Source: Bradyrhizobium sp. Ec3.3 (GTDB lineage Bacteria > Pseudomonadota > Alphaproteobacteria > Rhizobiales > Xanthobacteraceae). From it: 64,000 bases of DNA. The position numbers were made by a program, and so were the translations under genes. The notes under the pieces were generated by a model. The model did no database searches and had not been told where the DNA came from. It saw nothing but the letters and a program-made list of their open reading frames with translations. The stretch spans positions 124,001 through 188,000 of the forward strand of contig NZ_AXAS01000001.1 in the NCBI RefSeq assembly GCF_000472925.1, written 5' to 3'. Positions 10,909-41,150 of this stretch are shown here, piece after piece (position 1 is the stretch's first letter; every line of letters starts with the position of its first letter).

Positions 10909-10912
10909 GCCG

Positions 10913-11386: not shown

Positions 11387-11413
11387 GCGGCGAACGGAAC
11401 TCGGATCATCGTC

Positions 11414-12211
11414 ATGGCCCCTGCACTCACTGGAAAGACGCGCGTTCATGCGCTGATCGGTTCGCCCATTGCCCAGGTTCTCGCGCCGGGCTGGCTGACC
11501 GAGCGGATGCGAGAGGCCGGCTATGACGGCGTTCTGGTTCCCCTGCAGGTCGAGAAAGGCAGTCTCGATTGGGCGCTGCCTGTGCTCAAGGCGATGCCGA
11601 ACATCGACAGCATCCTCATTACCCTGCCGCACAAGTTCGGAGCGATCGCTCACTGCGATCGTCTATCGGAGCGCGCGCGGGTACTCGGCGCCATCAATGC
11701 AATGCGTCGCGAAGAAGATGGCCGCTGGTTCGGAGACAATTTCGACGGCGCTGGCCTGACCGCCGGGCTCAAGAAGGCCGGGCATACCATCAGAGGCAAG
11801 GGCGTATACATGATCGGCGCCGGCGGCGCGGGATCATCGATTGGCGTTTCCATGCTGGAGGAAGGCGCGCGTCACCTGACATTCCACGACATCAACGCCA
11901 ACAGCCAGAACACATTACTCGCCAAACTCAGCGCAGCATACGGCGGCCGGGTTGCCGTTGGCACCACGGTTCCACCGGATTGCGAGATAGTCGTCAATGC
12001 GACCTCGGCGGGCTTGCGTGACAGTGATCCGCTTCCCGTCAATCCGGGCGAACTTACATCGCGGATGGTCGTCGCCGACGTCATCACCGATCCGGTGCCG
12101 ACGAGATTGCTCCTTGAGGCCGCAAAATGCGGCTGCGCAACGCGGGACGGCACTCACATGCTGGACGGCCAGATCGATCTGCTGTTCGCGTTCATGCTCG
12201 GCAAGCGCTGA
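11414..12211 (+). CDS. Shikimate/quinate dehydrogenase-like oxidoreductase, atypical substrate motif
   Basis: A 265-residue AroE-family protein. The catalytic Lys (K74 in LPHK), N95 and the catalytic Asp (D111 in GDNFDG) are present, and GAGGAGSSIG forms the dinucleotide-binding loop near residue 138. The N-terminal substrate motif, normally HSLSP, reads QVLAPG, so both serines that hold the shikimate carboxylate are missing. It is therefore unlikely to be the biosynthetic AroE. Its operon position after sugar-acid enzymes suggests oxidation of a cyclic or linear hydroxy acid. The family call is firm; the substrate is unknown. Confidence 0.78.
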   Translation: MAPALTGKTRVHALIGSPIAQVLAPGWLTERMREAGYDGVLVPLQVEKGSLDWALPVLKAMPNIDSILITLPHKFGAIAHCDRLSERARVLGAINAMRREEDGRWFGDNFDGAGLTAGLKKAGHTIRGKGVYMIGAGGAGSSIGVSMLEEGARHLTFHDINANSQNTLLAKLSAAYGGRVAVGTTVPPDCEIVVNATSAGLRDSDPLPVNPGELTSRMVVADVITDPVPTRLLLEAAKCGCATRDGTHMLDGQIDLLFAFMLGKR

Positions 12212-12545
12212 GGGACCGACCACTATTTGCAAGCGGCATCAGCAATCTGTGCGGCGCCGGGAGGCGCGGCCGTCATCTTCGGTCGGTCGTCGCGACTGCA
12301 TGACCACCGCATACAGTCTCACGAAGTGAGACGACTATTTCTGAGCTGCGAAAGATGCGCTTCTCCTTGAAGCCGGCGCTAGATAACGTCTCGATCAAGT
12401 AATCAAAACAACCGATGAGCTTCGGGAGGACGAATTGGAAAAATTCGCTCAAGTTGATCGTCGATACACTTTCGCCGCTGTCTTGCTGACTCGGCGGAAT
12501 AAATTCGCCGGTGCTCTGACCAATCATTTCCATCAGGAGGGACGA
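12212..12545. other. Intergenic region before ABC importer operon
   Basis: About 330 bp with no supported gene. It must carry the promoter of the downstream importer. A good ribosome-binding site AGGAGG ends 5 bp before the ATG at 12546. No clear terminator or operator was recognised. Confidence 0.5.
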
Positions 12546-13343
12546 ATGAAACGTCTTGCAAGCCTCTTCGCGTTCACCATGGTCTCGCTCGTCGCGATGG
12601 GCCAGGTGGCATCCGCCGACACGCTGGAGAAGATCAAATCAGCCGGCACGATCCGGATCGCGATCGATCTCAGCGTGCCGCCATGGTCATTCAAGGACGA
12701 GAACCTGAATCCCACGGGATCGGAAGTCGAGGCCGCCAAGCTGTTGGCAGCGGATCTCGGTGCGAGGATGGAGATCGTTGCGACGAACGGCGCCAACCGC
12801 ATTCCGTTCCTGCTCTCCAACAGAGCCGATGTCATCATGTCGGCCCTGTCGATTACCGACGAACGTAAGAAGCTGATCGCATTCTCGCTTCCTTACGCCG
12901 GCGCGACAACGTACGTCGCCGCGCCAAAGAGCATGGACATCAAAACTTTCGTCGACCTTTCGGGCAAGCGCATTGCAGTCACGCGCGGGACCACCAATGA
13001 CGCCGACCTGACCGCAGCGGCGCCCCGTGATGCCCAAATCATCCGCTTCGAGGACGAGGCCACGACCATGACCGCGGTGGTGTCGAATCAGGTCGATCTC
13101 GTGGCCCAGGTGCCGACCCTGATCGATCTCATCAACAAGAAGAGCCCGGACAAGCACCTCGAGCCGAAGCTGCCGCTTCGTACCGCGCTGATGGGCGTCG
13201 GCCTGCGCAAGGAGGACACGGAGCTGAAGCAGTGGGTAGACGGCTGGGTCAAGACGAACGTCGTCAACGGCAAGCTGCAGGAGATATTCAAGAAGTTTCA
13301 GGGCACCGATCTTCCCAAAGAGGTCGCCGCCGCATCCCAGTGA
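12546..13343 (+). CDS. ABC transporter substrate-binding protein, family 3
   Basis: A 265-residue periplasmic binding protein. Residues 1-22 form a signal peptide ending in ASA, and the mature part starts ADTLEKIKSAGTIRIAIDLSVPP, the usual first strand of the SBP_bac_3 fold. The start chosen has a strong Shine-Dalgarno AGGAGG. It is the first gene of a four-gene polar amino-acid type importer with overlapping or tight junctions. Given neighbours in sugar-acid and shikimate-like chemistry, the ligand could be an amino acid or a carboxylate; sequence alone does not decide. Confidence 0.85.
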   Translation: MKRLASLFAFTMVSLVAMGQVASADTLEKIKSAGTIRIAIDLSVPPWSFKDENLNPTGSEVEAAKLLAADLGARMEIVATNGANRIPFLLSNRADVIMSALSITDERKKLIAFSLPYAGATTYVAAPKSMDIKTFVDLSGKRIAVTRGTTNDADLTAAAPRDAQIIRFEDEATTMTAVVSNQVDLVAQVPTLIDLINKKSPDKHLEPKLPLRTALMGVGLRKEDTELKQWVDGWVKTNVVNGKLQEIFKKFQGTDLPKEVAAASQ

Positions 13344-13375
13344 TGTCGCATTCGGCGGTGGCCAAGCGAGGGTCC

Positions 13376-14059
13376 ATGACATATCAATTCGACTTCGGAG
13401 CCGTGCTGGCCTACTGGCCCCTCCTGCTCGAGGGCATCTGGACGACGCTCCGCCTCACTTTCTTCTCTACCGTGTTCGGCATCCTGATCGGCGCCTTTTG
13501 CGCCGTGATCCGGACCGGCGGTTCATCCTGGGCACGCGCCGTCATCTCGCTCTATGTCGAGTTCATCCGCAACACGCCCCTGCTGGTGCAGGCCTACTTC
13601 CTGATCTTCGGTATCGCGAGCCTCGGCATCCGGCTGCCGATCCTGGTTGGCGCGACCATCGCGCTGACGGTCAATATCGGTGCCTACACGACCGAGATCG
13701 TCCGCGCGGGCATTGAATCCATCCATCGCGGCCAGCTCGAGGCGGCGACGTGCCTCGGCCTGTCCCGCACGCAAACTTATCTGCACGTGGTCATTCGGCC
13801 CGCGCTCGAGCGCGTCTATCCCGCGCTGTCGAGCCAATATGTCCTCCTGATGCTGGCCTCCAGCATCGTCTCGTCCGTCGGCGTCGAGGAACTCTTTGGA
13901 ATGTCGAACCGGATACAGAGCGAGACATTTCGCAACTTCGAAATCTTCGTGGTTCTTGGAATTATCTACCTGCTGCTCGCCATGCTTGTACGCACAGGAT
14001 TTACGTTGCTCGGGCTCGCAATGTTTCCACGCCGCCGCAAGCTCGGAACCTCTCTCTAA
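13376..14059 (+). CDS. Amino-acid type ABC transporter permease
   Basis: A 227-residue inner-membrane permease of the HisMQ type with several hydrophobic segments and the EAA loop EAATCLGLSRTQTYLHVVIRPAL, which docks to the ATPase. I chose the ATG giving MTYQFDFGAV, the usual N-terminus; an ATG at 13343 overlapping the preceding stop would add 11 residues and cannot be excluded. It pairs with the next permease as a heterodimer. Confidence 0.82.
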   Translation: MTYQFDFGAVLAYWPLLLEGIWTTLRLTFFSTVFGILIGAFCAVIRTGGSSWARAVISLYVEFIRNTPLLVQAYFLIFGIASLGIRLPILVGATIALTVNIGAYTTEIVRAGIESIHRGQLEAATCLGLSRTQTYLHVVIRPALERVYPALSSQYVLLMLASSIVSSVGVEELFGMSNRIQSETFRNFEIFVVLGIIYLLLAMLVRTGFTLLGLAMFPRRRKLGTSL

Positions 14060-28167: not shown

Positions 28168-28562
28168 AGACGAAAACATCAATAATAACAATAGCTTACA
28201 ATGATGGTTCGATTCCAGATTTTCGGGAAAATTCTCAACGCACATTGAAAACACGCGTAAAAATTCGCTCCAGCCGTGCGTGTTGTCGGTATTTTTGTCG
28301 GTATTTGGGAGAACAACTGTTCGCAAGCTTCGGCTTGGCAAGCCAGTGCCACGAACTCCGGGCGAAGCGAGTGAAGGCTGTCACGCCGAAGCTCGCAAGG
28401 CGAAGGCGGACTGGCGCAAGATCAGAGGCACCACACCAGCAATGCCTCACTTCAATGCTCATCCAGCAGTCCGCAGACTACCGCTCCATGGTCCGAATAC
28501 CGTGTCGGTCGCTCGATCGTAGATCCGGCTGCTTGCGCATACGAGAACGACATCAACGGGAA

Positions 28563-28584
28563 TGCCGGCCGCCTGAGGCCGGCA
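28563..28584 (-). terminator. Hairpin downstream of precursor peptide 1
   Basis: TGCCGGCC and GGCCGGCA form a perfect 8-bp stem with a 6-nt loop, 32 bp beyond the stop of the peptide gene on the - strand. A short T-containing stretch follows rather than a clear U tract. It probably terminates the peptide transcript. Confidence 0.5.
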
Positions 28585-28616
28585 CTGAGCTTCGTATTTC
28601 CAGGATCAGATGGAGA

Positions 28617-28814
28617 CTAACCGCCGATGCCGGTGTTGGCGTACGTGGTAATGACAAGCGGGTAAGCGCCGCCCGAGACCGCGTCGAGTTGATCATCCGG
28701 CAGCGCCTCATTCAGGGCCGCGACGGGCGTCTTCGCCGGGGCGGGATCGCCGGGTTTGATAGTCTCTTGATGTGCCGCGTTCGCCGTGGAATTCGTGTCC
28801 TGCCTATTGGTCAT
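28617..28814 (-). CDS. Double-glycine precursor peptide 1
   Basis: A 65-residue peptide with a GGAG ribosome-binding site before the ATG. The leader starts MTNRQDTNSTA and ends LPDDQLDAVSGG, the hydrophobic-acidic pattern before GG that C39 peptidases cleave. The core would be AYPLVITTYANTGIGG, 16 residues. Leader start and core both align without gaps to precursor peptide 2. The gene lies at the far end of the transporter cluster, with its own promoter block at 28931-28980. No cysteine is present, so no thioether or disulfide is possible. It resembles microcin or RiPP precursors but I do not recognise a named family. Confidence 0.75.
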   Translation of the reverse strand: MTNRQDTNSTANAAHQETIKPGDPAPAKTPVAALNEALPDDQLDAVSGGAYPLVITTYANTGIGG

Positions 28815-28930
28815 CCTTCAATCTCCAATTCAAAATTTGCAGCGGTCCGATGAGGTCATTTCCCGAATATTCAAGGGCTTGAGAACCGGTTTCCCGGCGC
28901 CGCCCTGTGGTTCAGGCGCCTCGGGGGGTG

Positions 28931-28980
28931 AAGTTATCGCTGGATCCATTTGCCCGCGATACGGCAGATGCCGTATTTCC
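28931..28980 (-). promoter_or_regulatory. Conserved promoter block with perfect 18-bp dyad, site 1
   Basis: The dyad ATACGGCAGATGCCGTAT at 28959-28976 is a perfect inverted repeat (8-bp arms, GA centre). Reading along the - strand it is followed by a conserved segment ending near GATAACTT. The same block occurs upstream of precursor peptide 2 and at 38538. It lies 145 bp upstream of the peptide 1 start. A dimeric regulator, possibly the NarL-type protein at 40500, is the likely ligand. Confidence 0.6.
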
Positions 28981-29038
28981 GTCGTCGTTCACGGGGACGT
29001 GTCGAAAGGCCCCTCTTCGAAAGGCTCTGCCTTCGACC

Positions 29039-29338
29039 TCAGGGATGCAAAGAGAAATTATACGCGCCGAGATTCATTACCGACAGTCCTCTGCTCAGCC
29101 CACCTGAGTTTTGTACACTGTCACCGTTATCCTTCCAGAACCCACCTTGCCGCCGGCTGTAGTAGCGGCTGATTTGACCAATCTCTTCATCCAGAGACAC
29201 TGCGATGTACTGCTCAAACGCTTCCGCCCTGTGTGGAGGCGCAAGAAGTCGATTGACCCTGACAAATAGACGACGGACTTGGTCTGCGTCCTCTTCGGCA
29301 AACGGCCGTATGATGATCCCAGGTTCCAACTGATCCAC
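29039..29338 (-). pseudogene. Truncated GNAT acetyltransferase fragment
   Basis: The first 70 or so residues (GIIIRPFAEEDADQVRRLF, then EQYIAVSLDEEIG and YYSRRQGGFW) look like the start of a GNAT N-acetyltransferase. The acetyl-CoA-binding R/QxxGxG/A core that should follow is absent; the frame runs into unrelated sequence. Functional GNAT proteins need about 150 residues. It sits between precursor peptides, so it could be the wreck of a peptide-modifying or self-resistance acetyltransferase, or unrelated debris. Confidence 0.55.
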
Positions 29339-29594
29339 CTGCTGCGCTCGTCGCGTCCTTCAGAAAACGGCAACACGTGGCGCACATACTATCGAATTGC
29401 AGAAAGCCCGCTACGATTCACACAAGCTGACGCCGCAGCAAATGCCATCGGACGTGCGCTTTGGGGCCAATACGCGACATCCGAATTCCGTCATCAGACC
29501 GTGTAAAGGCGGCTGCAGAGACCCTGGTCGGTGATTGCCAAGACAGACGGCGCGTTGCTTTGGGAGCAATAAGCGGTGTGTAAGATCGCGACGG

Positions 29595-29888
29595 CTAAGA
29601 TGATCTGCTGGAATAGACCAGCGTGGAGGGAATGGAGCTTGGCATGGTTTCCGATGATTTTCGGAAGAACGTCTTGGCGTACGGGCTGACCGCGGCACAG
29701 ATCCCGGCGAGCGCTTTTCGGTTAGCCCCCGGGCCTGAACTGCCGATGCTGGCATACGTAGCGGTACCGTACGGCCAAGAGCCGCCTGACAGATGGCCCA
29801 GCGAGCTGTCGCTGAGCGCATCAAAATCGCGGGAGAGCGCTTTCTCCCCGCCCTTGTTTCCCCCGGGGGGTGACAGGGCTCCCTGCAC
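29595..29888 (-). pseudogene. Degenerate precursor peptide 3, in frame after peptide 2
   Basis: A 97-codon frame that follows the TAG of peptide 2 directly and in the same frame, opening with GTG. It keeps the second half of the leader (DFDALSDSSLGHLSGG) and a core starting SWPYGTATYASIGSSGPG, but has lost the N-terminal QDTNSTA segment, and its core runs on for 61 residues. At the DNA level 29742-29823 duplicates 29910-29991 with an offset of 168 bp. No good ribosome-binding site is seen. It is probably a partial tandem duplication, decayed or expressed only by readthrough. Confidence 0.6.
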
Positions 29889-30092
29889 CTAGCCCCCGCC
29901 ACCTGCGGAGCCGATGCCGGCACGCACAGTGGTATTGTACGGCCAAGAGCCGCCCGACACTTCGTCCAGCGAGCTGTCGCTGAGCGCATCAGAGGTCGCC
30001 GAGATCTGGGACGCCTGGTTCTGAGCGCCGTCCTTCAGGCTCTCGCCAGGCTCGGCTTGCGCCGTCGAATTCGTATCCTGCCCGCCTGTCAT
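29889..30092 (-). CDS. Double-glycine precursor peptide 2
   Basis: A 67-residue peptide. The ATG at 30092 has GGTGGAG seven bases upstream, which is preferred over a TTG six bases earlier. The leader begins MTGGQDTNSTA and ends ALSDSSLDEVSGG; the predicted core is SWPYNTTVRAGIGSAGGGG, 19 residues. Shared with peptide 1: the QDTNSTA start, the LDxVSGG cleavage motif and core positions [YW]-P, A10, G13 and G16. The promoter dyad is 83 bp upstream. It is the first small gene after the exporter operon and its probable main cargo. Confidence 0.78.
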   Translation of the reverse strand: MTGGQDTNSTAQAEPGESLKDGAQNQASQISATSDALSDSSLDEVSGGSWPYNTTVRAGIGSAGGGG

Positions 30093-30145
30093 ATTCAATC
30101 TCCACCTTGGTCAATGTTGATCGGCTAAACCCTACATTGAAACCG

Positions 30146-30194
30146 AAAGCTACCGCTGGATCGATTTGCGAGCGATACGGCAGATGTCGTATTT
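30146..30194 (-). promoter_or_regulatory. Conserved promoter block with 18-bp dyad, site 2
   Basis: ATACGGCAGATGTCGTAT at 30175-30192 differs from site 1 by one base. The flanking block toward the peptide (GCTCGCAAATCGATCCAGCG on the - strand) is also conserved. The site lies between the cyclic-nucleotide-binding gene and precursor peptide 2, so peptide 2 has its own promoter. Confidence 0.6.
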
Positions 30195-30237
30195 CGTCGT
30201 CGGTCACGGGGACGTGTCGAAAGCCCTGCCTTCGACC

Positions 30238-30801
30238 TCAGGATTTGGCGCCCTTCATCGCGACCTGCTCGACAAGCTTGAGCAGCCGGTCGAACCTTTC
30301 GCCGGCCATCGACACCTGATCGAGCACGGCAGGATCAAGCTCATCCTTCAAACGCGTGGACTCGTCGCCGAGAGCGCTGTCCTGCTCGCCATAGGCCATC
30401 CGGCGCTCGGTGGCGCGCAGGCGGTCCGACAGCAGGATGGCGAGCGCGCGATAAAAGCGGCTGGCAAAGGCGTGATCGGCTGCGAGCTTGCGCAGCAGGA
30501 CCTGTTTGTCCAGGAACAGGGCAACCGAATCGACCTTCGCGGCCACCGTGGCCGAGGGCGGCCCTGAATCGACCAGCGACATCTCGCCGATGAAGTCGCC
30601 CGCCGCGATCTGGGCGATCTCGCCGATGCCCGATACGCTCACGCCCATTCGTCCCTGCAGCAGCAGAACGACCGAATCGATCGGCACGCCTTCGGCGATC
30701 AGGACGTCCTGCCCCGGGATGGTGCGGCGGGAGCCGGCTCGGGCCATCCAGTCGATGTCGGAATCGTTCAGCACGCCGAATATGAAGAGGACCTTGCGCA
30801 T
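30238..30801 (-). CDS. Cyclic-nucleotide-binding domain protein of the export cluster
   Basis: A 187-residue protein with one CNB domain (residues about 10-130). The phosphate-binding cassette region reads GDFIGEMSLVDSGPPSATV, the common bacterial variant in which the cAMP-contacting Arg is not obvious. A short amphipathic C-terminal tail follows; there is no helix-turn-helix, so it is not a Crp-type regulator. It starts 12 bp after the second ABC exporter gene. Small CNB proteins recur beside NHLM-type exporters and may regulate them. Confidence 0.78.
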   Translation of the reverse strand: MRKVLFIFGVLNDSDIDWMARAGSRRTIPGQDVLIAEGVPIDSVVLLLQGRMGVSVSGIGEIAQIAAGDFIGEMSLVDSGPPSATVAAKVDSVALFLDKQVLLRKLAADHAFASRFYRALAILLSDRLRATERRMAYGEQDSALGDESTRLKDELDPAVLDQVSMAGERFDRLLKLVEQVAMKGAKS

Positions 30802-30813
30802 ATCGGTGACCCC

Positions 30814-33720
30814 CTAGATCAGTTGACGTTCCGCGAAATCGGCAAACAGGCCCGGCTGCGCCATCAGTTCGGCAAAGGTGCCACTCTGCACGATCCTGCC
30901 GCCGGCCAGGACGAGAATTCGGTCTGCCGACTGAACGGTGCTGAGCCGGTGCGCGATGACGATGCGGGTCAGGTTGAGCCTGGATATTGAATCGCTGACA
31001 ATAGCCTGGGACCGGTTGTCGAGCGCGCTGGTGGCCTCATCCATCAGCAGGAGCCGCGGCTGATGCGCCAGCGCCCGCGCGATCAGCAATCGCTGGCGCT
31101 GGCCGCCCGAGAGCGTGCTGACGCCCTCGGCAATGAGTGTCTGCATGCCCATGGGCATGGCCTCGAGGTCGCGGTCCAGTCCTGCCAAGCGCGCGATCTC
31201 CCAGGCCTGATCAAGCGACAGCTCGGCGCCGCCGCAGATGTTCTCGTAGACGCTGCCGGAGGCGAGCCTGGAGTTCTGCAGCACGACGCCGACCTCGCGG
31301 CGCAACAGTCCGAGATCGATGGTGTCGAGCGATTTACCGTCCACGAAAATCACGCCGGATTCCGGCTTCTCGAAGCCGAGCAGCAGACGGAACAGCGTCG
31401 ACTTGCCGCTTCCGGAGGGGCCGACAATGGCAAGGTATTCTCCCTTGCGCACGCTGAAGCTGACATCATCGAGAATCAGTGGCCCGCCCTCGCCGTAGCT
31501 GAACGACACGTTGGCAAACTCGATCGAGCCGCCGATCTCACCAACCGATTTCTGCTCGTCGCTGATTTCGGTCGCGCTCGCGATGATCGGCCTCAGCCGC
31601 TCGATCCTGGGGATTGCGATTAGCAGCTCTCCGATCGCCAGCGCCCATTCGCCGATCGCGGCAAGCGCCAGCCCGAACGCCGCGTAAAATGCCAGGAACG
31701 TGCCGAGATCATGCTGCAGCCTGAGGCTGGACACGTTCTCGGCGAGGGCAAAGATGAGCAGCGTCGCCACGGCAGGAAACGCCGCATCAAAACTCTTCTG
31801 GAGGTTTGCCGCACGCTGCGATGCGATGAAATTGCGCTTCTGCTCGCCGAAGTGTTCGACCCAGATCGCAAGCGCGTGCATGGTCGCGTTCGCAATCCGC
31901 AGTTTTCCGACGCCGGTGAGAAACTGCAGAACCAGCCCCTCCAGCCGTCCCTGCTGATGCAGGCTCTCCCGTTCGTTGGACAGTCGCGCCAGATTGATCG
32001 CCACCACCACGGCGACCCGCACGCCCGCGAGCGCAGCCGCGAGCATGCCGAGCCTGACATCGAGGTACAGCATCACGGCAAAACTGAAGAAGCACGACAC
32101 CAGGGCCAGGCAACCGCGGATCGCCCGGCCGGTGATGACCGTGCGGACGGCCTCGATGCCAAGCGTGCGATCCGCGAGGTCGCCGACGGAAAAGTTGCGG
32201 AAAAAAGCCGCCGGCATCCGCAGCAGACGGTCGACGACCGCGGCCTGCAAGACCCAGTCCAACCGGCTCTCGAGCCGCAGCATGGCGATGCCCTGCATCA
32301 TCTGAAAACCGCCGGCCACCAGGGTGACGACAATGAGCGCGATGGCGCAGATCAGGAGCTGGTCCGCCTCGGCGCGCGGGATGACGGAATCGATCAGCAG
32401 CTTGGTGACCAGGGGCGTCGCCAGCGCGAGAAGGCCGAGGCACAAGGCCGCCAGCATGATCCGCAGGACATCGGCGCGAACCGTCGCGGCGCCGAATCGC
32501 AGGAGATCGCGGACCGTCAGGGCGCGCGACGGCAGTGGCCGATAGAACATTACCGCCTCGGGCGCGAGTTCAGCGGCTGTTGACGGCGTCAGTTCGCGGT
32601 GCGTGCCGGCGCCGGGATCGACGATGATGTGGCGCCCGCCTGCCACCGGAAGGATCGCGACGGCCCGCCGGTCTTCACCGAGAAACGCGACGAATGGACC
32701 GGCGCCGTTGGTCCACCAATCCGTTCGTAGCAGCAGGCGCCGCATCCGCACCCGCGAGGCCCGTGCGATCATCACGGCGTCCACGAAATCGTCGTTGCCG
32801 GACATCATGCTGGCCGGAGCCTGGAGCGAAATGCCCATGGCGTCGGCGACCTCCCGACAGGCGGAAAGCAGATGGCTGGCGCCAACCGCGCTGGCTTGCG
32901 ATACGCCGGATCCGGCCGTGATGATGCCGGCAAGACGGCTGACAATGCTGGTTGTGCGTAGCCGGTTCAGGTTCGAGCGCAGGCGCAGACGGTCGGCTTC
33001 CGCAACGTGTTCCTCGTCGATCCTGCGACGCAGGCTCTCCATGACGCGCAGGTGGAAGCGATCGAGCGCAGCCCAGACCTCGGCAAGCGGGAATGCCGCG
33101 CTCTCCAAAACCTCCAGCGTCGTCTCCTCGCGGGCGACGATCCACGAGCCCGCCGGCATCGGCAAGGGACGCTCGCCGGCGCCATGCAGCTGCGGCATCT
33201 CCATCATGAAGACGGTGCCATGCTCGATCGCGATCCAGCCGGTTCGCTGGCCGGACAGCCGGAGAATATCGCCGGATGCCAGCGCGTATCGCGAGCCGAT
33301 CGCAGCCTGCTGCACCACCGCTCCTCGAGGAGACGTTGCGATGATCTCCGACACAAGCGCGGTCCATGCGTCGATCGCGTCACGATCGGCAAAACGGCCG
33401 CGATGGACGATCATGACTTCGGTCTCGAGGCCGCCGACCGCAATGACGCTCAGCGAAGTCCCGTTTCCATCGCCGATGGTTGGCAGGCCGAAAATGACGG
33501 CGCCCTGCTCGACCCGGAACAGATGGTGCCGCCGGCTCGGCGCGCCGTTCCCGCTCTCCCTCACAGCGAACAGGTCCACATAGCCGCTCACGACGTGCAG
33601 AACGAGATCGACATCATTGATCGGCAACGGCCGGTGGCTCTCGAGCGCGACCGGAGCGGACGCCGTGCCGGGACGGCGGGGCGCGATTTCAAGCGGCGGA
33701 GGCTGGTAGGCGCTGCTCAT
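30814..33720 (-). CDS. NHLM-type bacteriocin ABC transporter, ATP-binding/permease with long N-terminal region
   Basis: A 968-residue exporter. The first 400 residues or so are a cupin/cNMP-like and accessory region (VEQGAVIFGLP near residue 90), followed by an ABC membrane domain from about 450 and a nucleotide-binding domain with Walker A GPSGSGKST near 767, signature LSGGQ at 870 and Walker B LLLMDE near 890. This architecture matches the second ABC protein of NHLM systems, which lacks the protease. The start overlaps the stop of the protease-bearing exporter (ATGA), so the two likely form a heterodimer that secretes the small peptides. Confidence 0.85.
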   Translation of the reverse strand: MSSAYQPPPLEIAPRRPGTASAPVALESHRPLPINDVDLVLHVVSGYVDLFAVRESGNGAPSRRHHLFRVEQGAVIFGLPTIGDGNGTSLSVIAVGGLETEVMIVHRGRFADRDAIDAWTALVSEIIATSPRGAVVQQAAIGSRYALASGDILRLSGQRTGWIAIEHGTVFMMEMPQLHGAGERPLPMPAGSWIVAREETTLEVLESAAFPLAEVWAALDRFHLRVMESLRRRIDEEHVAEADRLRLRSNLNRLRTTSIVSRLAGIITAGSGVSQASAVGASHLLSACREVADAMGISLQAPASMMSGNDDFVDAVMIARASRVRMRRLLLRTDWWTNGAGPFVAFLGEDRRAVAILPVAGGRHIIVDPGAGTHRELTPSTAAELAPEAVMFYRPLPSRALTVRDLLRFGAATVRADVLRIMLAALCLGLLALATPLVTKLLIDSVIPRAEADQLLICAIALIVVTLVAGGFQMMQGIAMLRLESRLDWVLQAAVVDRLLRMPAAFFRNFSVGDLADRTLGIEAVRTVITGRAIRGCLALVSCFFSFAVMLYLDVRLGMLAAALAGVRVAVVVAINLARLSNERESLHQQGRLEGLVLQFLTGVGKLRIANATMHALAIWVEHFGEQKRNFIASQRAANLQKSFDAAFPAVATLLIFALAENVSSLRLQHDLGTFLAFYAAFGLALAAIGEWALAIGELLIAIPRIERLRPIIASATEISDEQKSVGEIGGSIEFANVSFSYGEGGPLILDDVSFSVRKGEYLAIVGPSGSGKSTLFRLLLGFEKPESGVIFVDGKSLDTIDLGLLRREVGVVLQNSRLASGSVYENICGGAELSLDQAWEIARLAGLDRDLEAMPMGMQTLIAEGVSTLSGGQRQRLLIARALAHQPRLLLMDEATSALDNRSQAIVSDSISRLNLTRIVIAHRLSTVQSADRILVLAGGRIVQSGTFAELMAQPGLFADFAERQLI

Positions 33721-35942
33721 TCGCTCGACACCAGCTCGACATATTCGCCACCTTCGGCCAGCAGCTCCTGATGCGTTCCCCGCTGCACGACCCGCCCGCT
33801 GCTCATCACGAGGATCTCGTCGCAATCGCGAATCGTGCTGAGCCGGTGCGCAACAATGATGCAGGTGCAGCCCCGGCGCCGGAGATTATCGTCGATCGCC
33901 TTCTCGACGATCGGGTCCAGCGCCGAGGTTGCCTCGTCGAGGACGACGACGGAAGGATTGCCCGCCAGCGCCCGCGCGATCTCGAGCCGCTGCCGCTGGC
34001 CGCCGCTGAAATTCCTGCCGTCCTCGGCCACATGGCAATCGTAGTTGCCGGCGCGGACGGCAATCTCCCCGTGGATCAGCGCGTCCTTGAGCGCCCGCGA
34101 CACGCTGGCTTCCAGCACGGTGTCGTCCCAGAGCGTAAGGTTGTCGCGCGCCGTGCCTTCGAACAGAAGGATTTCCTGATCAATATAGGCGACCGAGTTG
34201 GTGAAGATTTCCTGGGGGATCTCGACCATCGACCAGCCGTCGATGCGGATGTCGCCGGACCACGGGCGGTAGAGTCCGGCGACGAGCCGTCCAACGGTGG
34301 ATTTGCCACTGCCAGACGATCCGACCAGGGCCACGCGGCGGCCCGGTTCGACGATCAGCGAAAAATCCTCGATCAGCGGCGGCTCGAGCGCCGAATAGCC
34401 GAACGAGATGTCCTTCAATTCGACCCGGCCCGACAGTTTCGCCGGTAGCATTGCCGGCGCGCGTTCGATTCCCACCAGGGGACGGGCGGGATAGTTGAAG
34501 ACGTCCTCGATCCGGAACAGGTTGCCCTTGATGGCCAGGAAGGCTGTGGTCTGCTGCACGAGCGCGTTGATCGGCTCGACCAGGCTGGTGAGCAGCGCCT
34601 GCAAAGCGACGAGGCCGCCGATCGTCAATGCACCATCGACGATCCGTAAGCCGCCCAACCCAAGCACCATCGCGGTCGTCAATCCGGTCAGAAAGATCGG
34701 GCAGGTGTCGAGGAAGGTGGAGTAGACGCCGAGATCACGCTCGGCGTTCAGGACTTTGGCCTGAAACCCTGCCCAGCGCGCAAAGGCGTCGTCCTCCAGA
34801 CCACCGGCCTTGATGGTTTCGATCGTGCGGATGATTTCGATGGTGCTTCCATTCAGCTTGGCACGCTCGATTGACAGTTTGCGGTTGAGGTCCTCGCGCT
34901 GGCGCGCGACCAGCCTGAGGACGATGACATTGAGGAGAGCCATGGCGATGCTGATCGCGGCCAGCAAAGCATCGTAGCACGCCATCGTAACGGCGATGAA
35001 GATGACCGAGATCAGGTTCAGTGCATTGGCAGCCACCCCGTTCGAAAGCAGCTGGGCGATCTGTTCGCTGGCGGCGATGCGGTTGGCGAGGTCGCCCGAG
35101 TGCCGCTGGGTGAAGAACTCCATCGGAAGGGTCAGGACGTGCCATAATAGCTGGCTGACCATCGTCACCGTCAGCTTGGTCTGGATGCGCAGAAGCAGCG
35201 ACTGTTGAAACGCCGTGATCAGCGCGCGCGCCAGGGCTGTGATCGCCATTCCGATCAGCAAAGGCGTGAACCAGCCCTCGACATGCTTGATCAGGACGTC
35301 ATCGATGAAGATCTTTGCAAATGCCGGAACCAGGATGGTGGGCACTACGAGCGCCATGCTGAGCGCAACCAGCAACAGCGCCGCCGCAGCCGAATTCGAC
35401 AGTCGCCGCAGCAGCAGCGGAAAGAAATCGGGCTCGCGCCCGCCCGGCTTGAAGTCGGGTCCCGGCTCCATCGCCAGCACGACACCGGTGAAGGAGGAGT
35501 CAAACTCGTCGTGACCGACCTTGCGGCGCCCGGTCGAGGGATCGTTGATATAGGCGTAGTTCGCGTCCAGCCGCTCCAGGACCACGAAGTGGTTGAAGTT
35601 CCAATGAACGATCGATGGCATCGGAAGCTCATGGAGCGTCGCCGGCTCCTTCCTGAACCCTTTCGCCGTCAGTCCGAACTGCCGCGCAGCCTTCAGCACG
35701 TTGCTGGCCTTGCTGCCGTCCCGGGACACGCCGCATGCCTCGCGCAGCTTTTCCAGCGGCACCCACTGACCGTGATAGGCGAGGACCATCGCGAGCGAGG
35801 CGGCGCCGCATTCCAGTGCTTCCATCTGGAACACCGTGGGCGTGACCCAGCGCCGCCGCCCCGGCAACGGGAGACGCCCGATCCAGTTGCCGAGACGATC
35901 GAGGAGCGGCGGCCGGGCGTCGGTTTGGCGCGATGGGATCAT
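33717..35942 (-). CDS. NHLM-type bacteriocin ABC transporter with C39 peptidase domain
   Basis: A 741-residue peptidase-exporter. The N-terminal C39 domain has an intact catalytic triad: C45 in ALECGAASLAM, H118 in WNFNHFVVL and D134 in INDPSTG. Membrane segments start near 200 and the ATPase domain has GSSGSGKST, FSGGQRQRLEIARAL and [12 protein letters not shown]. It should cut leaders after GG and export the core. It lies 12 bp after the HlyD gene and overlaps the next exporter by four bases. The double-glycine peptides at 28617 and 29889 are the obvious substrates. Confidence 0.9.
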   Translation of the reverse strand: MIPSRQTDARPPLLDRLGNWIGRLPLPGRRRWVTPTVFQMEALECGAASLAMVLAYHGQWVPLEKLREACGVSRDGSKASNVLKAARQFGLTAKGFRKEPATLHELPMPSIVHWNFNHFVVLERLDANYAYINDPSTGRRKVGHDEFDSSFTGVVLAMEPGPDFKPGGREPDFFPLLLRRLSNSAAAALLLVALSMALVVPTILVPAFAKIFIDDVLIKHVEGWFTPLLIGMAITALARALITAFQQSLLLRIQTKLTVTMVSQLLWHVLTLPMEFFTQRHSGDLANRIAASEQIAQLLSNGVAANALNLISVIFIAVTMACYDALLAAISIAMALLNVIVLRLVARQREDLNRKLSIERAKLNGSTIEIIRTIETIKAGGLEDDAFARWAGFQAKVLNAERDLGVYSTFLDTCPIFLTGLTTAMVLGLGGLRIVDGALTIGGLVALQALLTSLVEPINALVQQTTAFLAIKGNLFRIEDVFNYPARPLVGIERAPAMLPAKLSGRVELKDISFGYSALEPPLIEDFSLIVEPGRRVALVGSSGSGKSTVGRLVAGLYRPWSGDIRIDGWSMVEIPQEIFTNSVAYIDQEILLFEGTARDNLTLWDDTVLEASVSRALKDALIHGEIAVRAGNYDCHVAEDGRNFSGGQRQRLEIARALAGNPSVVVLDEATSALDPIVEKAIDDNLRRRGCTCIIVAHRLSTIRDCDEILVMSSGRVVQRGTHQELLAEGGEYVELVSSE

Positions 35943-35954
35943 GCACTGCCGATC

Positions 35955-37223
35955 CTAGCCGCCGATTCCGCTCAGCCGCTTCATCAACGGGATCACCAGA
36001 TCGATCGGCGGCTGCTCGCGCGTCGTGACTTCGGCGCGCGTCAACGTACCGCTCGAGAGCAGGATCGGTGGCCCCTTGCCGGACGTCCAGCGATAGCTGC
36101 TGAAGGTTGAAGGATCGCGCTCCAGGGCCACCTTCGCCGCATAGGGTGCCCCGTCCTGCGAGAAGCGTTTGACAAGGGCGTCGTTGTGAAGGTCCGCCAG
36201 CATGCCCTGGGGCGTCACCGGGAAGTCCGAGACGGCCACCACACTACCGACAATCGCGCCGTATTCTTCCCGCTTGATCGTCGTCGGTTCGACACGAACC
36301 TCCATGCCGGGCCTGATGGTCTTACCGCGATCCGGCGGCATGTAGATAGTCGCCTCCAACCTTTGCCCCGCGGTCTCGATCTCGATAATGGGCGTCCCCA
36401 GGGCGAGCACGGCGCCGCCGGACACTTTGACCTCGACGACACGACCGTCTGCGGGACTGACAATCCGCGACCCTCGCTCGAGCTCGGCCGCAAGCTGCTC
36501 AACCGACCGCTTCGCATCATTGACCCTGAATTCCGAAAGCAACCGATCACGCTCGCGTTGGCTGCGCAAATCCAGCCGCTGCGCATTGAGCTTGAGAATG
36601 TCGTTGTTGGCGTCGGTAATGCGCTCCCGCGCATTGTTGAGCTCGACGCGGCGGTCCTCGAGATATTTGCGCGTCACGATTCCGCTTGCCGCCGCCGGCT
36701 CGAGCTTGCCCACCTCGTCCGTGAGATAGGCGGTGCGCTTCTCGGCGGCCGCAATCACGTTGGCCAGACCCGCTTCCTGAGCCGCATAGTTGGCAAGCTT
36801 GGCATCGATCTCCCGCGAGATCGCGCCGGTGAGCTCGGCATGTTCGCGCTCGCGCTCGCGCAGAACATCCCTCGCCTGCTCGAGCCGCTGCTCGGTCTCG
36901 GTCTGCGCGACGTGGGCGATCACCTGATCACGACGGACCTCGTCGCCGATGCCGACGTCGAGCGAGGCCAGCTTTCCGCTCACGGCGGACACGGCGTCGA
37001 CCAGGCGACCGCCACTGCTTAGCAAAATGCCATCGCCGGATACGCGCGTTGGAATGCGCCCCAGCACACTCCAGGCCAATAGCACGGCAAGACCCAGCGC
37101 CAGCGTCGCGGCGGCCAACCAGTCAAACGGGCGGGTAACGCCGACAACATGGTCGAGCTGCTCGGGATTCGAAAGCCGCTCGATGGCCGCTTCACGAAAG
37201 ATTCGCTCTGTGCCTCGTTTCAT
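35955..37223 (-). CDS. HlyD-family periplasmic adaptor of NHLM-type exporter
   Basis: A 422-residue membrane fusion protein. One membrane segment lies near residues 38-60, followed by a biotinyl-lipoyl strand, a long coiled coil (residues about 115-265, rich in Glu, Arg and Ala) and a beta-barrel part with GRVVEVKVSGGAVLALGTPI. I chose the ATG giving MKRGTERIFREAA; a start six codons earlier is possible. It links the two ABC proteins to an outer-membrane channel, presumably a host TolC, since none is encoded here. Confidence 0.85.
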   Translation of the reverse strand: MKRGTERIFREAAIERLSNPEQLDHVVGVTRPFDWLAAATLALGLAVLLAWSVLGRIPTRVSGDGILLSSGGRLVDAVSAVSGKLASLDVGIGDEVRRDQVIAHVAQTETEQRLEQARDVLREREREHAELTGAISREIDAKLANYAAQEAGLANVIAAAEKRTAYLTDEVGKLEPAAASGIVTRKYLEDRRVELNNARERITDANNDILKLNAQRLDLRSQRERDRLLSEFRVNDAKRSVEQLAAELERGSRIVSPADGRVVEVKVSGGAVLALGTPIIEIETAGQRLEATIYMPPDRGKTIRPGMEVRVEPTTIKREEYGAIVGSVVAVSDFPVTPQGMLADLHNDALVKRFSQDGAPYAAKVALERDPSTFSSYRWTSGKGPPILLSSGTLTRAEVTTREQPPIDLVIPLMKRLSGIGG

Positions 37224-37420
37224 GCAGCCCCCGCAACACACCGGGCCATTCTCGACCAGGCTCGATTTGGCCGGAACGCTTTCGTTTTTTCAAGCAGATA
37301 TTGCTCGCCAGCACAGGCAAAGTTTTGACCGTTCGCTTGCCGCGACACGACTGGATCAAAAGCGTGAACTCCGAACCGGCCGCACGCAGGAGCCACGCAC
37401 GCCTTGCCACGAGACCCCAG

Positions 37421-38152
37421 CTAGATCACAAGGAAGAGTCCAGAAATCAGCAGCAAGCCAAGGATGATGCGTTTGAAGGCTGCTTCGTTGATCCGACCGA
37501 ACAGGACGATCCCTGCAGCCGTTCCGGCAGCCAGGGCGGGCAGAGAAATGCCAAAGTCGATCAAGACCTTTAACGAGAGGCTGTGATGCGAGAGCATGAG
37601 AGCGAGGGCAAATATTTGCATCACCCCGATGTAGGGTTGAACCAGGCCGCGCTGCTGTGTTTTCGGAAGACCATGGATGTCGCACCAGATCACAGGAAGC
37701 GCGCCGGGCATCGCGGTCAAGCCGCCGACCAGCCCGCCGCCAAACCCCACCAGCGCGTTCCTGCTCTGGCTCTCCATTTGACGCAGGTAGGCAGCCGTCG
37801 GCCGCACCAAGGCATATGCCGCGTAAAGCGACACCAGAGCTCCAAATCCCAGCCTGAAAACGCCGGTATCCACATTCTGGAGCAGGTAGATCGCGATCGG
37901 AATGCCCAATAGTCCACCAGCGATGAACACCAGGCTGGTTTTCCATTGCATGCTCTTGCGTAGCGCATAAAGATTGGCCGCTTGCACGGTGATGCTGCAG
38001 GCCATCATCAATGGGACAGCTTCTATGGGCGGAAACACGTGTAGCAGGATGGCGCCCGCGACCGCCGAGAAGGCAAACCCGGATAGGCCAGACACAAACG
38101 CGCCAGCAAAAACCGCCGCGCTTAGCACCAAATAAACCGCTATATCCGACAT
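37421..38152 (-). CDS. TSUP-family (TauE/SafE) membrane transporter
   Basis: A 243-residue protein with about eight membrane segments. GAFVSGLSGFAFSAVAGAILL at the N-terminus and GGGLVGGLTAMPGALPVIW in the middle are the two family repeats. Members export sulfite or sulfonates. I chose the ATG giving MSDIAVYLVL because an 18-residue upstream extension is polar. It lies 197 bp upstream of hlyD on the same strand, so it may be co-transcribed, but a role in peptide export is not evident. Confidence 0.8.
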   Translation of the reverse strand: MSDIAVYLVLSAAVFAGAFVSGLSGFAFSAVAGAILLHVFPPIEAVPLMMACSITVQAANLYALRKSMQWKTSLVFIAGGLLGIPIAIYLLQNVDTGVFRLGFGALVSLYAAYALVRPTAAYLRQMESQSRNALVGFGGGLVGGLTAMPGALPVIWCDIHGLPKTQQRGLVQPYIGVMQIFALALMLSHHSLSLKVLIDFGISLPALAAGTAAGIVLFGRINEAAFKRIILGLLLISGLFLVI

Positions 38153-38666
38153 GGCATTGTTTTCTGGAAAATACGTTTTCAACCGGGCGACAAATAACCA
38201 ATCCATCTAGTCGCAGTGGATCGCCATCGCTGCCGTTTCGACCGGGTGGTCACCCGGCGCGTGATGCAGCATGTCTCCCGCGACGACGTGCAAAATGCCG
38301 AAGCCGGCAAGGACAGCGATTGTCCACGTCTTGAGCGGCGGCGGTGGTCGCCGCGCGTGGCAGCTATCGGCATTGCCATATCCAAATTACCTTTCTGTCC
38401 GCGTTCGAAGCGAAGCTGCCCCGTCTTGATAGGCCCTCGTGATGGTGCAGCCCTGCTCCCAGCCGGATTCAAGTTCGGGGGGCTGTCCAAACGCGTTTAG
38501 TTGTGGGGAAAGATATCGCCGGGTCGATTCGCGGACGATACGGCAGATGTCGTATTTCGGCGCTCTCAGGAGGCTGATGTCGAAAGGCCCAACTCGCCGC
38601 AATCGGCGGCGCGGTGCGAGATCAGGGCCGCCTCACAATCTCAACCGTAGCCGCACCTGGGAGCAG
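38153..38666. other. Intergenic region upstream of the export operon
   Basis: About 510 bp between TSUP and the kinase. It contains promoter block site 3 (38509-38557) and, on the - strand at 38207-38335, a protein-like frame of 42 codons (LKTWTIAVLAGFGILHVVAG, ending AMAIHCD) that lacks any ATG, GTG or TTG start and is cut upstream by TAA. That frame may be a decayed small membrane protein. No double-glycine motif is seen. Confidence 0.5.
38509..38557 (-). promoter_or_regulatory. Conserved promoter block with 18-bp dyad, site 3
   Basis: ATACGGCAGATGTCGTAT at 38538-38555, identical to the site 2 dyad, with the same flank toward the export genes (GAATCGACCCGGCGATATCTT on the - strand in place of the peptide-gene version). 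It stands 386 bp upstream of the TSUP start and downstream of the kinase. It probably drives TSUP and the HlyD-ABC operon. Confidence 0.55.
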
Positions 38667-40448
38667 CTACACGTGCTCTTGCCAGCCACTACTGATCGAT
38701 CGCTTGCGATCTACAAAGGCCGCAATGATCGCTTCGTGCAATTGCTCGCCGGTGATCGGCTTGTGAAGAATACGATGACCGCTGGCGGTGGCTTCCTTGA
38801 TGCGCGCCGGCGAGGTATCGCCAGTCACGATGATTGCAGGCAGGGAGCGGCCGATATAGGCGCAAAGAGCCTCGATTGCGTCCTGGCCAGTCGCACCACC
38901 CCCGAGGCGGTAGTCGGCCACGATCAGATCGACCGGCGCATCGCCGGCCGCCATCGCCTCCGCATGAATCTTTTGCACCTCGGCGGCAGATCGGCCGGCA
39001 TAGACCCGATGCCCCTGCAGCGTGAGCAGCTGCACCATGATATCGAGAACATCCTCCTCGTCCTCCACTACCATGACGCTGACGGCGATGTCTGCGGATG
39101 GTGCCCTATGATCGGGCGGGGAAGGCGCTACTGCGCTGGCTAGCGGAACCGTCACGGAAAACATCGAACCGCGGCCGACGACGGAGACCAGCTTCAGCGG
39201 ATGTTGCAGCAGAGCGGCAGTGCGGCGAACGATGGCTAGGCCGAGGCCAAGGCCTTGCGCGCGATCCCTGGCAGGGTTCTGCAACTGCACGAATTCCTCG
39301 AAGATCATCGTTTGCTGATCTGCGGGGATGCCGGGTCCGGTATCCCATATCTGGATCTCCACCGAAGCACCGCGCCTGCGGCAACCGAGCAGAACGCCTC
39401 CGGATCTCGTGTATCGAAAGGCATTCGACAGCAGGTTGCCCAGGACCCGTTTCAGCATCATGGGATCGCTGTCCACCTGGAGACGGCTTTCAACGACACG
39501 CCAGTCAAGGCCGCGATCCTCTGCCTCCGCGCCGAATTCGTTGCTGAGCTGGTTGAAAAGCTGGGACAGGTTCATCGTCTCCCTCGCAACAGTGACGACG
39601 CCGGCATCCAGCCGGGAGATGTCGAGCAGTCCGTTCAGAAGAGCGCTGAGGTTTCCGACGATGGATTTTGCCTTGCCGGCGAGATCGCGCGCATCGCCGG
39701 ATTGGACGACGCCGCGACGACCCAGCGCCGCCAGCGTGGCGATCAGCAGGCTCAAGGCATGAATCGGCTGGCGCAGGTCATGACTGGCGGCAGCAAGGAA
39801 GCGCGTTTTCGCATGATCGGCGGCTTGCGCGCGGTCGCGTTCTTCCTGGAGGTGGCCAACCAGCTCGACATTTTCCAAACGCAATCTGATGGACTCACGC
39901 AGCATACGGTGCGTTGTGCGGCAATAATAGAGATTGATGGTCACAAGCCCCGTGAACAGGACGAGATATGCGCCGGAGCCATCACCTCCAATGATAAAGG
40001 AGCGCACCATGACCGGCAGCACAGTTACGATGATCGAGCCGACGAGAGCCGGCGGAAAGGCCGAGAGCGACGGAACTGTGCCGCAGACCAGACCGGCCAA
40101 TGCAATAATGGTGAATATGAAAGGAACGGGCTGTTCAGGAACGAACCCAACCCAGCCGAGCATTCCCCACAGCAGCCCCGACACGCAGGAAAACCCGGCC
40201 GCGAGCCACGCCCATCGCGACACAGACGCTGGTTCTCGTTTCCGGCTGAAGAACCGGCGCGCCGCCAGGACGCGTATGGCGGTGAGTAGATAAATCGCAC
40301 CGAGCCATCCGACCACCCAATTCGCCGGTACGGTGGTCCTCAGTACGTATGCTGCCGCCAGGGAGATGAGGACGTTGGAAGCCACGACTCCATAGGAATT
40401 GCGATACAGGAGCTCTACGAGCGCTTCACGTATCTTGTCCTCTTGCAT
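38667..40448 (-). CDS. Hybrid sensor histidine kinase with C-terminal receiver
   Basis: A 593-residue kinase. Six hydrophobic segments fill residues 20-175 with little periplasmic loop. A short coiled coil leads to the dimerisation domain with the phospho-acceptor H223 in SHDLRQP. The ATPase domain has NLLSNAFRYT, DTGPGIP and GLGLGLAI. A receiver domain follows with phospho-acceptor D512 in VADYRLGG and K near 564 (HKPI). Membrane-buried sensing suggests a lipophilic or envelope signal. The NarL regulator gene lies 51 bp upstream on the same strand; together they could control the dyad sites. Confidence 0.87.
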   Translation of the reverse strand: MQEDKIREALVELLYRNSYGVVASNVLISLAAAYVLRTTVPANWVVGWLGAIYLLTAIRVLAARRFFSRKREPASVSRWAWLAAGFSCVSGLLWGMLGWVGFVPEQPVPFIFTIIALAGLVCGTVPSLSAFPPALVGSIIVTVLPVMVRSFIIGGDGSGAYLVLFTGLVTINLYYCRTTHRMLRESIRLRLENVELVGHLQEERDRAQAADHAKTRFLAAASHDLRQPIHALSLLIATLAALGRRGVVQSGDARDLAGKAKSIVGNLSALLNGLLDISRLDAGVVTVARETMNLSQLFNQLSNEFGAEAEDRGLDWRVVESRLQVDSDPMMLKRVLGNLLSNAFRYTRSGGVLLGCRRRGASVEIQIWDTGPGIPADQQTMIFEEFVQLQNPARDRAQGLGLGLAIVRRTAALLQHPLKLVSVVGRGSMFSVTVPLASAVAPSPPDHRAPSADIAVSVMVVEDEEDVLDIMVQLLTLQGHRVYAGRSAAEVQKIHAEAMAAGDAPVDLIVADYRLGGGATGQDAIEALCAYIGRSLPAIIVTGDTSPARIKEATASGHRILHKPITGEQLHEAIIAAFVDRKRSISSGWQEHV

Positions 40449-40499: not shown

Positions 40500-41150
40500 C
40501 TACCCCGCTGGAAGGCCGAGACGAACCGCGTAGGCGGTCAACTCCGCACCACTGTGCAGATCCAGCTTCCGCATGAGATTCTCGCGATGTTTCCGGGCCG
40601 TGAGCAGACTAATGCCGAGACGGCTGGCGATGTCGCGGTTGCTGGCGCCGTGAGGGATCATCGCCAGGATTTGCAGCTCGCGCCTTGTCAGCGTGACCGG
40701 AGATATGTTCGCTGCCGAGGGCTCGGGGATTTCGCTCGGGCCGTCGTGGTGGTCCACCGCAAAGCGAACCTCCTGCGCCACATAGGTGTTGCCTTTCCTG
40801 ACGGCATCGATCGCAGCGACGAGTTCGGACGGATCGCCGCTTTTGGTCAAATACCCGCTCGCGCCCGCGGAAAGAGCCGCTCGAACGGAACGCGGCTCGA
40901 CATTGGCGGTGAGGACAAGAATCCGTAGCTCCGGCCAGGCGGTTCTGAGGTGAGCTATGAATTGAAAGCCGCTCACACCCGGCATGCCGAGATCAAGGAT
41001 GAGAAGATCGGCGGAGTATTCGTTCAGCAGCCGATGAACAGCTTCTGCGTCCGCCGCCTCTCCGCTGATAATCAGCCCGTCCACGGTCGACAGAAGCTGC
41101 TTCAGACCCTCCCGCATAATGGCGTGATCGTCAGCAATGATCGTCCGCAC
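40500..41150 (-). CDS. NarL/FixJ-family response regulator
   Basis: A 216-residue regulator: receiver domain with acidic pair D7/D8 and phospho-acceptor D53 (LILDLGMPG), K near 103, and a LuxR-type helix-turn-helix (residues about 150-210: LTRRELQILAMIPHGASNRDIA). It precedes the hybrid kinase in the same direction. NarL-type dimers bind two-fold symmetric sites, so it is the best local candidate for the ATACGGCA-GA-TGCCGTAT dyad. Confidence 0.88.
   Translation of the reverse strand: MRTIIADDHAIMREGLKQLLSTVDGLIISGEAADAEAVHRLLNEYSADLLILDLGMPGVSGFQFIAHLRTAWPELRILVLTANVEPRSVRAALSAGASGYLTKSGDPSELVAAIDAVRKGNTYVAQEVRFAVDHHDGPSEIPEPSAANISPVTLTRRELQILAMIPHGASNRDIASRLGISLLTARKHRENLMRKLDLHSGAELTAYAVRLGLPAG

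What the first reader, a model, noticed from the sequence alone, without database searches (positions are those of the whole stretch)
29595..30092. Two leader-core modules in one frame separated by a single TAG
Peptide 2 ends in TAG at 29889, and the frame continues without a stop for 97 codons through a second leader end (ALSDSSLGHLSGG) and core (SWPYGTATYASIGSSGPG). The DNA of 29742-29823 and 29910-29991 is duplicated with a 168-bp offset (56 codons, in frame). Either a tandem duplication has begun to decay, or readthrough or a GTG restart gives a second peptide.
Basis: seen in the sequence. Interest (0 to 1): 0.6.

Follow-up and report, generated by a model that had tools for sequence, protein, structure and literature searches.

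The report
Decayed copy of a secreted-peptide gene
Next to an intact gene for a small exported peptide in a soil bacterium lies the broken remains of a sister gene that has lost its start and happens to sit in the same reading frame; this looks like ordinary gene decay in a family of peptide genes that gains and loses copies.

Summary
Peptide 2 (ATG 30092, TAG 29891-29889) is an intact 67-aa double-glycine precursor beside an NHLM/NHLP-type exporter. The second module (29823-29722) is best explained as a 5'-truncated, decaying sister gene. It keeps 14 leader codons and a core but no start, RBS or 5' leader of its own. Its stop (TAA 29724-29722) is out of frame by one base. Its tail is antisense to a truncated usg fragment (29516-29704, plus strand). 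Ten other Bradyrhizobium genomes carry the family. In the 11 loci examined, 6 of 43 copies are defective; in one locus a truncated module follows an intact gene's TAG in another frame. One single in-frame stop also separates 2 other of 25 adjacent pairs, whose second genes are intact. So the TAG looks like a normal stop and the shared frame like chance. Counter-evidence: GTG 29888 has a good Shine-Dalgarno-like sequence, the cleavage motif survives, and the tree cannot reject peptide 2 and module 3 as a sister pair. By-product: an 18-bp palindrome found only at this locus (3 sites in 10 Mb).

The parts
29889..30092 (-). Peptide 2: intact double-glycine precursor, 67 aa, leader ...DALSDSSLDEVSGG, core SWPYNTTVRAGIGSAGGGG; stop TAG 29891-29889
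   Evidence: 10 other genomes of the genus carry the family; alignment A1
29824..29888 (-). Spacer after the TAG: begins GTG; GC-rich hairpin (about 29856-29822, MFE only, no shuffle control); no match to a leader; loosely like intergenic stretches of G099
29722..29823 (-). Truncated module: last 14 leader codons DALSDSSLGHLSGG, core SWPYGTATYASIGSSGPG; stop-like TAA 29724-29722 is out of frame by one base
29516..29704 (+). Truncated usg gene fragment (5' flank plus about 24 codons, MELGMVSDDFRKNVLAYGLTAAQI); its antisense supplies the tail of the 97-codon frame
   Evidence: (intact own-genome copy in L058 hits PF06233)
28617..28814 (-). Peptide 1: second intact precursor, 65 aa, ...LDAVSGG, core AYPLVITTYANTGIGG
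30175..30192 (.). 18-bp palindrome upstream of peptide 2
28959..28976 (.). 18-bp palindrome upstream of peptide 1
38538..38555 (.). 18-bp palindrome between the kinase gene and the TauE/exporter genes
30238..30801 (-). Cyclic-nucleotide-binding-domain protein, related to TIGR03896 (150.3 bits, below its 161.05 cut-off)
30814..33825 (-). NHLM ABC transporter 2 (TIGR03797); ORF from its first start codon, true start probably further in
33717..35942 (-). NHLM C39 peptidase/ABC transporter 1 (TIGR03796)
35955..37241 (-). HlyD-like adaptor (TIGR03794)
37421..38206 (-). TauE/SafE family membrane protein
38667..40448 (-). Hybrid sensor kinase (HisKA, HATPase_c, REC)
40500..41150 (-). Response regulator, REC + GerE/LuxR-type DNA-binding domain

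Best explanation
The locus is a small array of double-glycine peptide precursors served by an NHLM-type C39 exporter. Peptide 2 is a normal gene that ends at its TAG. The second module is what remains of a neighbouring sister gene. A deletion joined the DNA after peptide 2's stop to the middle of the sister's leader, removing the sister's RBS, start and 5' leader half. A one-base slip in a G-run put its stop out of frame. Another rearrangement put a reversed usg fragment right behind it. Shown: the sequence features. Inferred: the order and mechanism of the events, and the lack of expression. Sharing peptide 2's frame with a single stop between is most likely chance.
For: Of 42 leader-end matches of at least 15 bits in 11 loci, 37 have a family start in frame; module 3 is one of 5 that do not (two weaker matches, 9.8 and 12.0 bits, were dropped). 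Counting one copy with its 3' part lost (G111, L038:14596-14754), 6 of 43 are defective. Module 3's homology to other copies begins at 29823 or 29822 in all the listed matches but one, a G052 copy whose match begins 7 nt earlier. V(-4) is the same in 37 of 37 intact copies and D(-6) in over 90%; module 3 has L and G. Its leader-end differences from the other copies are 66% non-synonymous, second of 42 only to a frameshifted copy. Its stop is out of frame. The frame's tail is antisense to usg, whose intact copy is elsewhere in the genome. In G211 (L042) a truncated module follows an intact gene's TAG in a different frame. A single in-frame stop also separates 2 other of 25 adjacent pairs, both in G099, whose second genes have their own start.
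Against: GTG 29888, directly after the TAG, has SD-like pairing of -8.6 kcal/mol, better than the mean of 36 family starts (-7.6) and than about 97% of 1630 GTGs in the window. The core keeps SWPY and the double-glycine site keeps L-12, L-7, L-4 and GG. The relaxed-constraint argument rests on three leader changes. The G099 gene nearest to module 3 has the same out-of-frame stop and yet an intact start, so that slip alone does not prove decay. The genome is a 154-contig draft, so a base error cannot be excluded. No transcript or peptide data.
Confidence: 0.85

Rival explanations
1. Translational re-initiation: ribosomes ending at TAG 29889 restart at the adjoining GTG 29888 and make a second precursor with a short leader whose core is cut out by the C39 exporter.
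For: TAG and GTG are adjacent; SD-like -8.6 kcal/mol; GTG is the family-type start of two relatives' genes (G052 and G071, one search list); the cleavage motif survives.
Against: The new leader part (VQGALSPPGGNKGGEKALSRDF) matches no family leader; the product would carry a long tail read largely from antisense usg; the conserved D-6 and V-4 are lost; 0 of the 37 other copies whose flanks are printed have GTG right after the stop. The G-rich SD-like stretch encodes peptide 2's own glycine tail, which is reason enough for it.
Confidence: 0.09
2. Programmed TAG readthrough makes a two-module precursor from which the exporter cuts two cores.
For: The frame is open for 97 codons with an in-frame double-glycine module. 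Fused tandem precursors exist: NHLP pairs of Burkholderia are fused in Delftia and Acidovorax (PMC2887384, passages seen).
Against: The stop falls at the usual end of the core; the most similar genes end there in TGA (G071, G099, G052) or TAA (G111), though other copies use TAG. After the stops of the 42 copies the frame stays open for a median of 19 codons, and for at least 97 in 1 of 42, this one.
Confidence: 0.02
3. Recent in-strain tandem duplication of peptide 2, now decaying. It overlaps the best explanation: both say decay and differ in the age and parent of the copy.
For: 84% identity over 82 nt, in frame; the tree cannot reject the two as a pair (p-AU 0.33).
Against: Module 3 scores higher against the G099 copy at L035:12007 (130) than against peptide 2 (100); peptide 2 scores higher against G071 and G099 copies (131, 121) and groups with them at 92/76 (not starred). 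Module 3 and the G099 gene share the out-of-frame stop.
Confidence: 0.2

Closest known systems
NHLM/NHLP bacteriocin export system (TIGR03794, TIGR03796, TIGR03797; Haft et al. 2010, PMC2887384, passages seen)
   Same: All three exporter proteins pass the curated cut-offs; short double-glycine precursors lie beside them.
   Different: The precursors match neither the NHLP nor the N11P model at E<=1. No modification enzyme was found among the genes scanned, but not every ORF of the window was scanned.
Double-glycine precursor genes beside C39 exporters in cyanobacteria (PMC3140520, passages seen)
   Same: Several short precursors per cluster, conserved leader, very variable core.
   Different: Here in Bradyrhizobium, with a leader outside the NHLP and N11P models.
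Fused tandem NHLP precursors of Delftia/Acidovorax (PMC2887384, passages seen)
   Same: Two precursor modules in one frame.
   Different: There one polypeptide; here a stop between, and the second module is truncated.
usg-like family PF06233
   Same: 29516-29704 (+) is homologous to the 5' end of the intact own-genome usg.
   Different: Only a fragment, cut after about 24 codons; the fragment's own ORF gives no Pfam match at E<=1.

Membership tests
NHLM/NHLP export system | C39 peptidase-ABC (TIGR03796), ABC (TIGR03797) and HlyD (TIGR03794) proteins over cut-off | tested here: met
   1027.4 of 853.3, 811.2 of 709.4, 313.1 of 156.2 bits
NHLP or N11P precursor | Match to the NHLP/N11P leader models | tested here: not met
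   No such NCBIfam match at E<=1 for peptide 1, peptide 2 or the second module; peptide 1 has one weak match to another family (cerein, E 0.057, under cut-off)
Double-glycine leader peptide | GG site with hydrophobic -4, -7, -12 | tested here: met
   By sequence: peptides 1 and 2 and module 3; the rule itself is recalled
Double-glycine leader peptide | Cleavage and export by the C39 transporter | not testable with these tools
   Needs an experiment
Functional member of this precursor family | Own start and full leader | tested here: not met
   Module 3 lacks them; 37 of 42 leader-end matches have a family start
Functional member of this precursor family | Stop codon in frame at the usual core end | tested here: not met
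   TAA 29724-29722 is out of frame; the G099 gene L035:11905-12141 shares this and yet has an intact start
Stop-codon readthrough gene | Stop and downstream frame conserved in relatives | tested here: not met
   Stops differ (TGA, TAA, TAG); median 19 codons open after the stop, 42 copies
Re-initiation (termination-restart) gene | Start next to the stop with ribosome-binding potential | tested here: inconclusive
   GTG 29888, -8.6 kcal/mol; 0 of 37 other copies printed have GTG after the stop

The most novel reading that the evidence does not exclude
The truncated, start-less modules beside intact precursors are silent cassettes that donate core sequences to the expressed genes by recombination, so that the array diversifies its secreted peptides. 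Peptide 2 looks mosaic: its UTR and 5' leader score best with G111 and G052 genes, its leader end and core with G071 and G099 genes, and module 3 is identical to it over 26 nt at the leader end.
Probability: 0.05. Interest if true: 0.6.

Novelty: new member of a known kind. Interest (0 to 1): 0.22.

Why it matters
It warns that an in-frame, stop-separated leader-core module can be a relic, and that frame openness in 63% GC DNA is weak evidence of translation. The wider locus matters more: a Bradyrhizobium double-glycine peptide family with an NHLM exporter and a locus-specific 18-bp palindrome that accompanies a sensor kinase and a LuxR-type regulator, which makes its regulation directly testable. 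Of my eight literature searches six named Bradyrhizobium or rhizobia; from their listings, and from passages of two papers, I saw no description of this family. The library holds only open-licence papers, so it may still be in print.

Tried and rejected
A maximum-likelihood tree of 18 of the 42 copies (those with a WP/WS core long enough to align; 119 columns) was meant to settle whether peptide 2 and module 3 are a recent pair. It did not: p-AU 0.33 for that pair and 0.27 for module 3 with the G099 copy at 12007. Readthrough was considered and rejected. No sigma-70-like promoter and no terminator-like site was found in 28400-30400, so the hairpin after peptide 2 is not called a terminator. 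No relative of 28500-30300 was found among 72,556 plasmid records. A family-level search with alignment A1 hit 8 of 391 sampled genomes, 4 of them only weakly. The ORF at 29039-29338 (-) looked acetyltransferase-like by eye but gave no Pfam or NCBIfam match at E<=1, so no name is claimed. No second strain of the window's own species was available in the collections searched.

Full report
Observation. On the minus strand, peptide 2 runs from ATG 30092 to TAG 29891-29889; the same frame is then open for 97 codons (29888-29598) to TAG 29597-29595. 29742-29823 and 29910-29991 match at 84% over 82 nt, 168 bp apart; a search of the whole own genome gives the copy E = 1.4e-18. Of the 13 differences, 7 are at codon position 1, 4 at position 2 and 2 at position 3. 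Frame openness alone is weak: 293 of 2581 stop-to-stop frames in the window are as long, and a Markov model gives P = 0.116.

Setting. The genome has 10.03 Mb in 154 contigs. Upstream of the peptides, on the same strand, lie a cyclic-nucleotide-binding protein, two NHLM ABC transporters (one with a C39 peptidase), HlyD, TauE/SafE, a hybrid sensor kinase and a LuxR-type response regulator. A second intact precursor (peptide 1) is at 28814-28617.

Family. 11 of 265 genomes of the genus, own included, have homologues. In the stretches fetched, the ten other loci carry 1 to 12 copies, most with a family start, usually ATG, behind a GGAGA-like sequence. In 8 of the 10 loci exporter genes lie in the fetched stretch; in G018 and G145 none were found there. 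TIGR03796 passes its cut-off in 66 of 257 genomes, so the exporter type is wider than this peptide family.

The second module. Its homology to other copies begins at 29823 or 29822, apart from one G052 copy whose match begins 7 nt earlier. It keeps 14 leader codons and the core and lacks the rest. The 65-nt spacer matches no leader; it can form a GC-rich hairpin, as can the two G099 stretches that I chose to fold (no shuffle control). In a forced global alignment with part of the G099 array, peptide 2 aligns with the gene at L035:11483-11683 and module 3 with the next one, L035:11905-12141; the spacer falls in scattered pieces over the G099 intergenic stretch and the start and 5' leader have no counterpart. 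Module 3's best local match is that second G099 gene (130, then 110, 106, and 100 for peptide 2), and both have the terminal stop out of frame by one base. The tree on 119 columns does not settle it: peptide 2 groups with G071/G099 copies at 92/76, module 3 is unresolved, and neither pairing is rejected. So 'old sister gene' is favoured, not shown.

Decay. Module 3 has lost V(-4), the same in 37 of 37 intact copies, and D(-6), conserved in over 90%. Its leader-end differences from the other copies are 66% non-synonymous, second of 42 only to a frameshifted copy. The plus strand at 29516-29704 is a usg fragment: 73% identical to the intact own-genome copy, whose ORF hits PF06233 at 1.7e-39, and cut at 29704. 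The last part of the 97-codon frame is its antisense. Defective copies recur: 5 of 42 leader-end matches lack a family start (two in G211, one each in G216, G145 and here; two weaker matches of 9.8 and 12.0 bits were dropped), and one more in G111 has lost its 3' part. In G211 a truncated module follows an intact gene's TAG in another frame.

Is the shared frame meaningful? Of 25 adjacent pairs closer than 1500 bp, 14 are in the same frame, 3 and 8 in the two others; the excess of the same frame is not explained, and the pairs are not independent. A single in-frame stop separates 3 of 25: this pair and two in G099, whose second genes have their own start. Nothing seen marks the TAG here as special.

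Against this reading. GTG 29888 has SD-like pairing of -8.6 kcal/mol (family mean -7.6, n = 36; top 3% of 1630 GTGs in the window), and the double-glycine site is still plausible. A restart is therefore kept at 0.09. The SD-like stretch is the coding sequence of peptide 2's glycine tail.

By-product. The palindrome ATACGRCANNTGYCGTAT occurs 3 times in the whole own genome with up to one mismatch allowed, all at this locus; the reversed control has none. In the genus 16 of 257 genomes have it: the 11 with the peptides and 5 others with one site each; the reversed control is 0 in the genomes listed. In those 5 the site lies next to a kinase/response-regulator pair, the kinase being in two pieces in G115. 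Of two further G216 sites, one also lies by such a pair and the other has only a weak kinase match. I infer that the response regulator binds it.

Verdict: an ordinary decayed array member, in a locus that is itself worth a closer look.

Noticed in passing
window 28959-28976, 30175-30192, 38538-38555: 18-bp palindrome, only 3 sites in the genome, present in the 11 peptide-bearing genomes and in 5 others beside the same kinase/response-regulator pair: probably the regulator's operator.
   Followed up: yes
L035 (G099) 10725-13675: Array of ten precursor genes in about 3 kb with differing cores; two more on the other side of the exporter.
   Followed up: partly
L035 (G099) 11905-12141: Precursor with intact start whose usual stop is out of frame by one base, giving a C-terminal extension ADRESTRANDGSS.
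   Followed up: partly
L039 (G018) and L044 (G145): Regulators, TauE, palindrome and one precursor or remnant are present but no exporter was found in the fetched stretch: loci apparently falling apart.
   Followed up: partly
L038 (G111) about 5370-5630, minus strand: A possible Nif11-like precursor (MKIDQWTNFVSSVGDD...ALDAASGA) inside the same locus; the name is recalled, not tested.
   Followed up: no
25 adjacent module pairs in the 11 loci: Neighbouring modules are in the same frame more often than a third of the time (14, 3, 8); unexplained and possibly due to shared ancestry.
   Followed up: no
G000:C84:87911-90022: A second NHLM C39 transporter over cut-off elsewhere in the same genome.
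   Followed up: no
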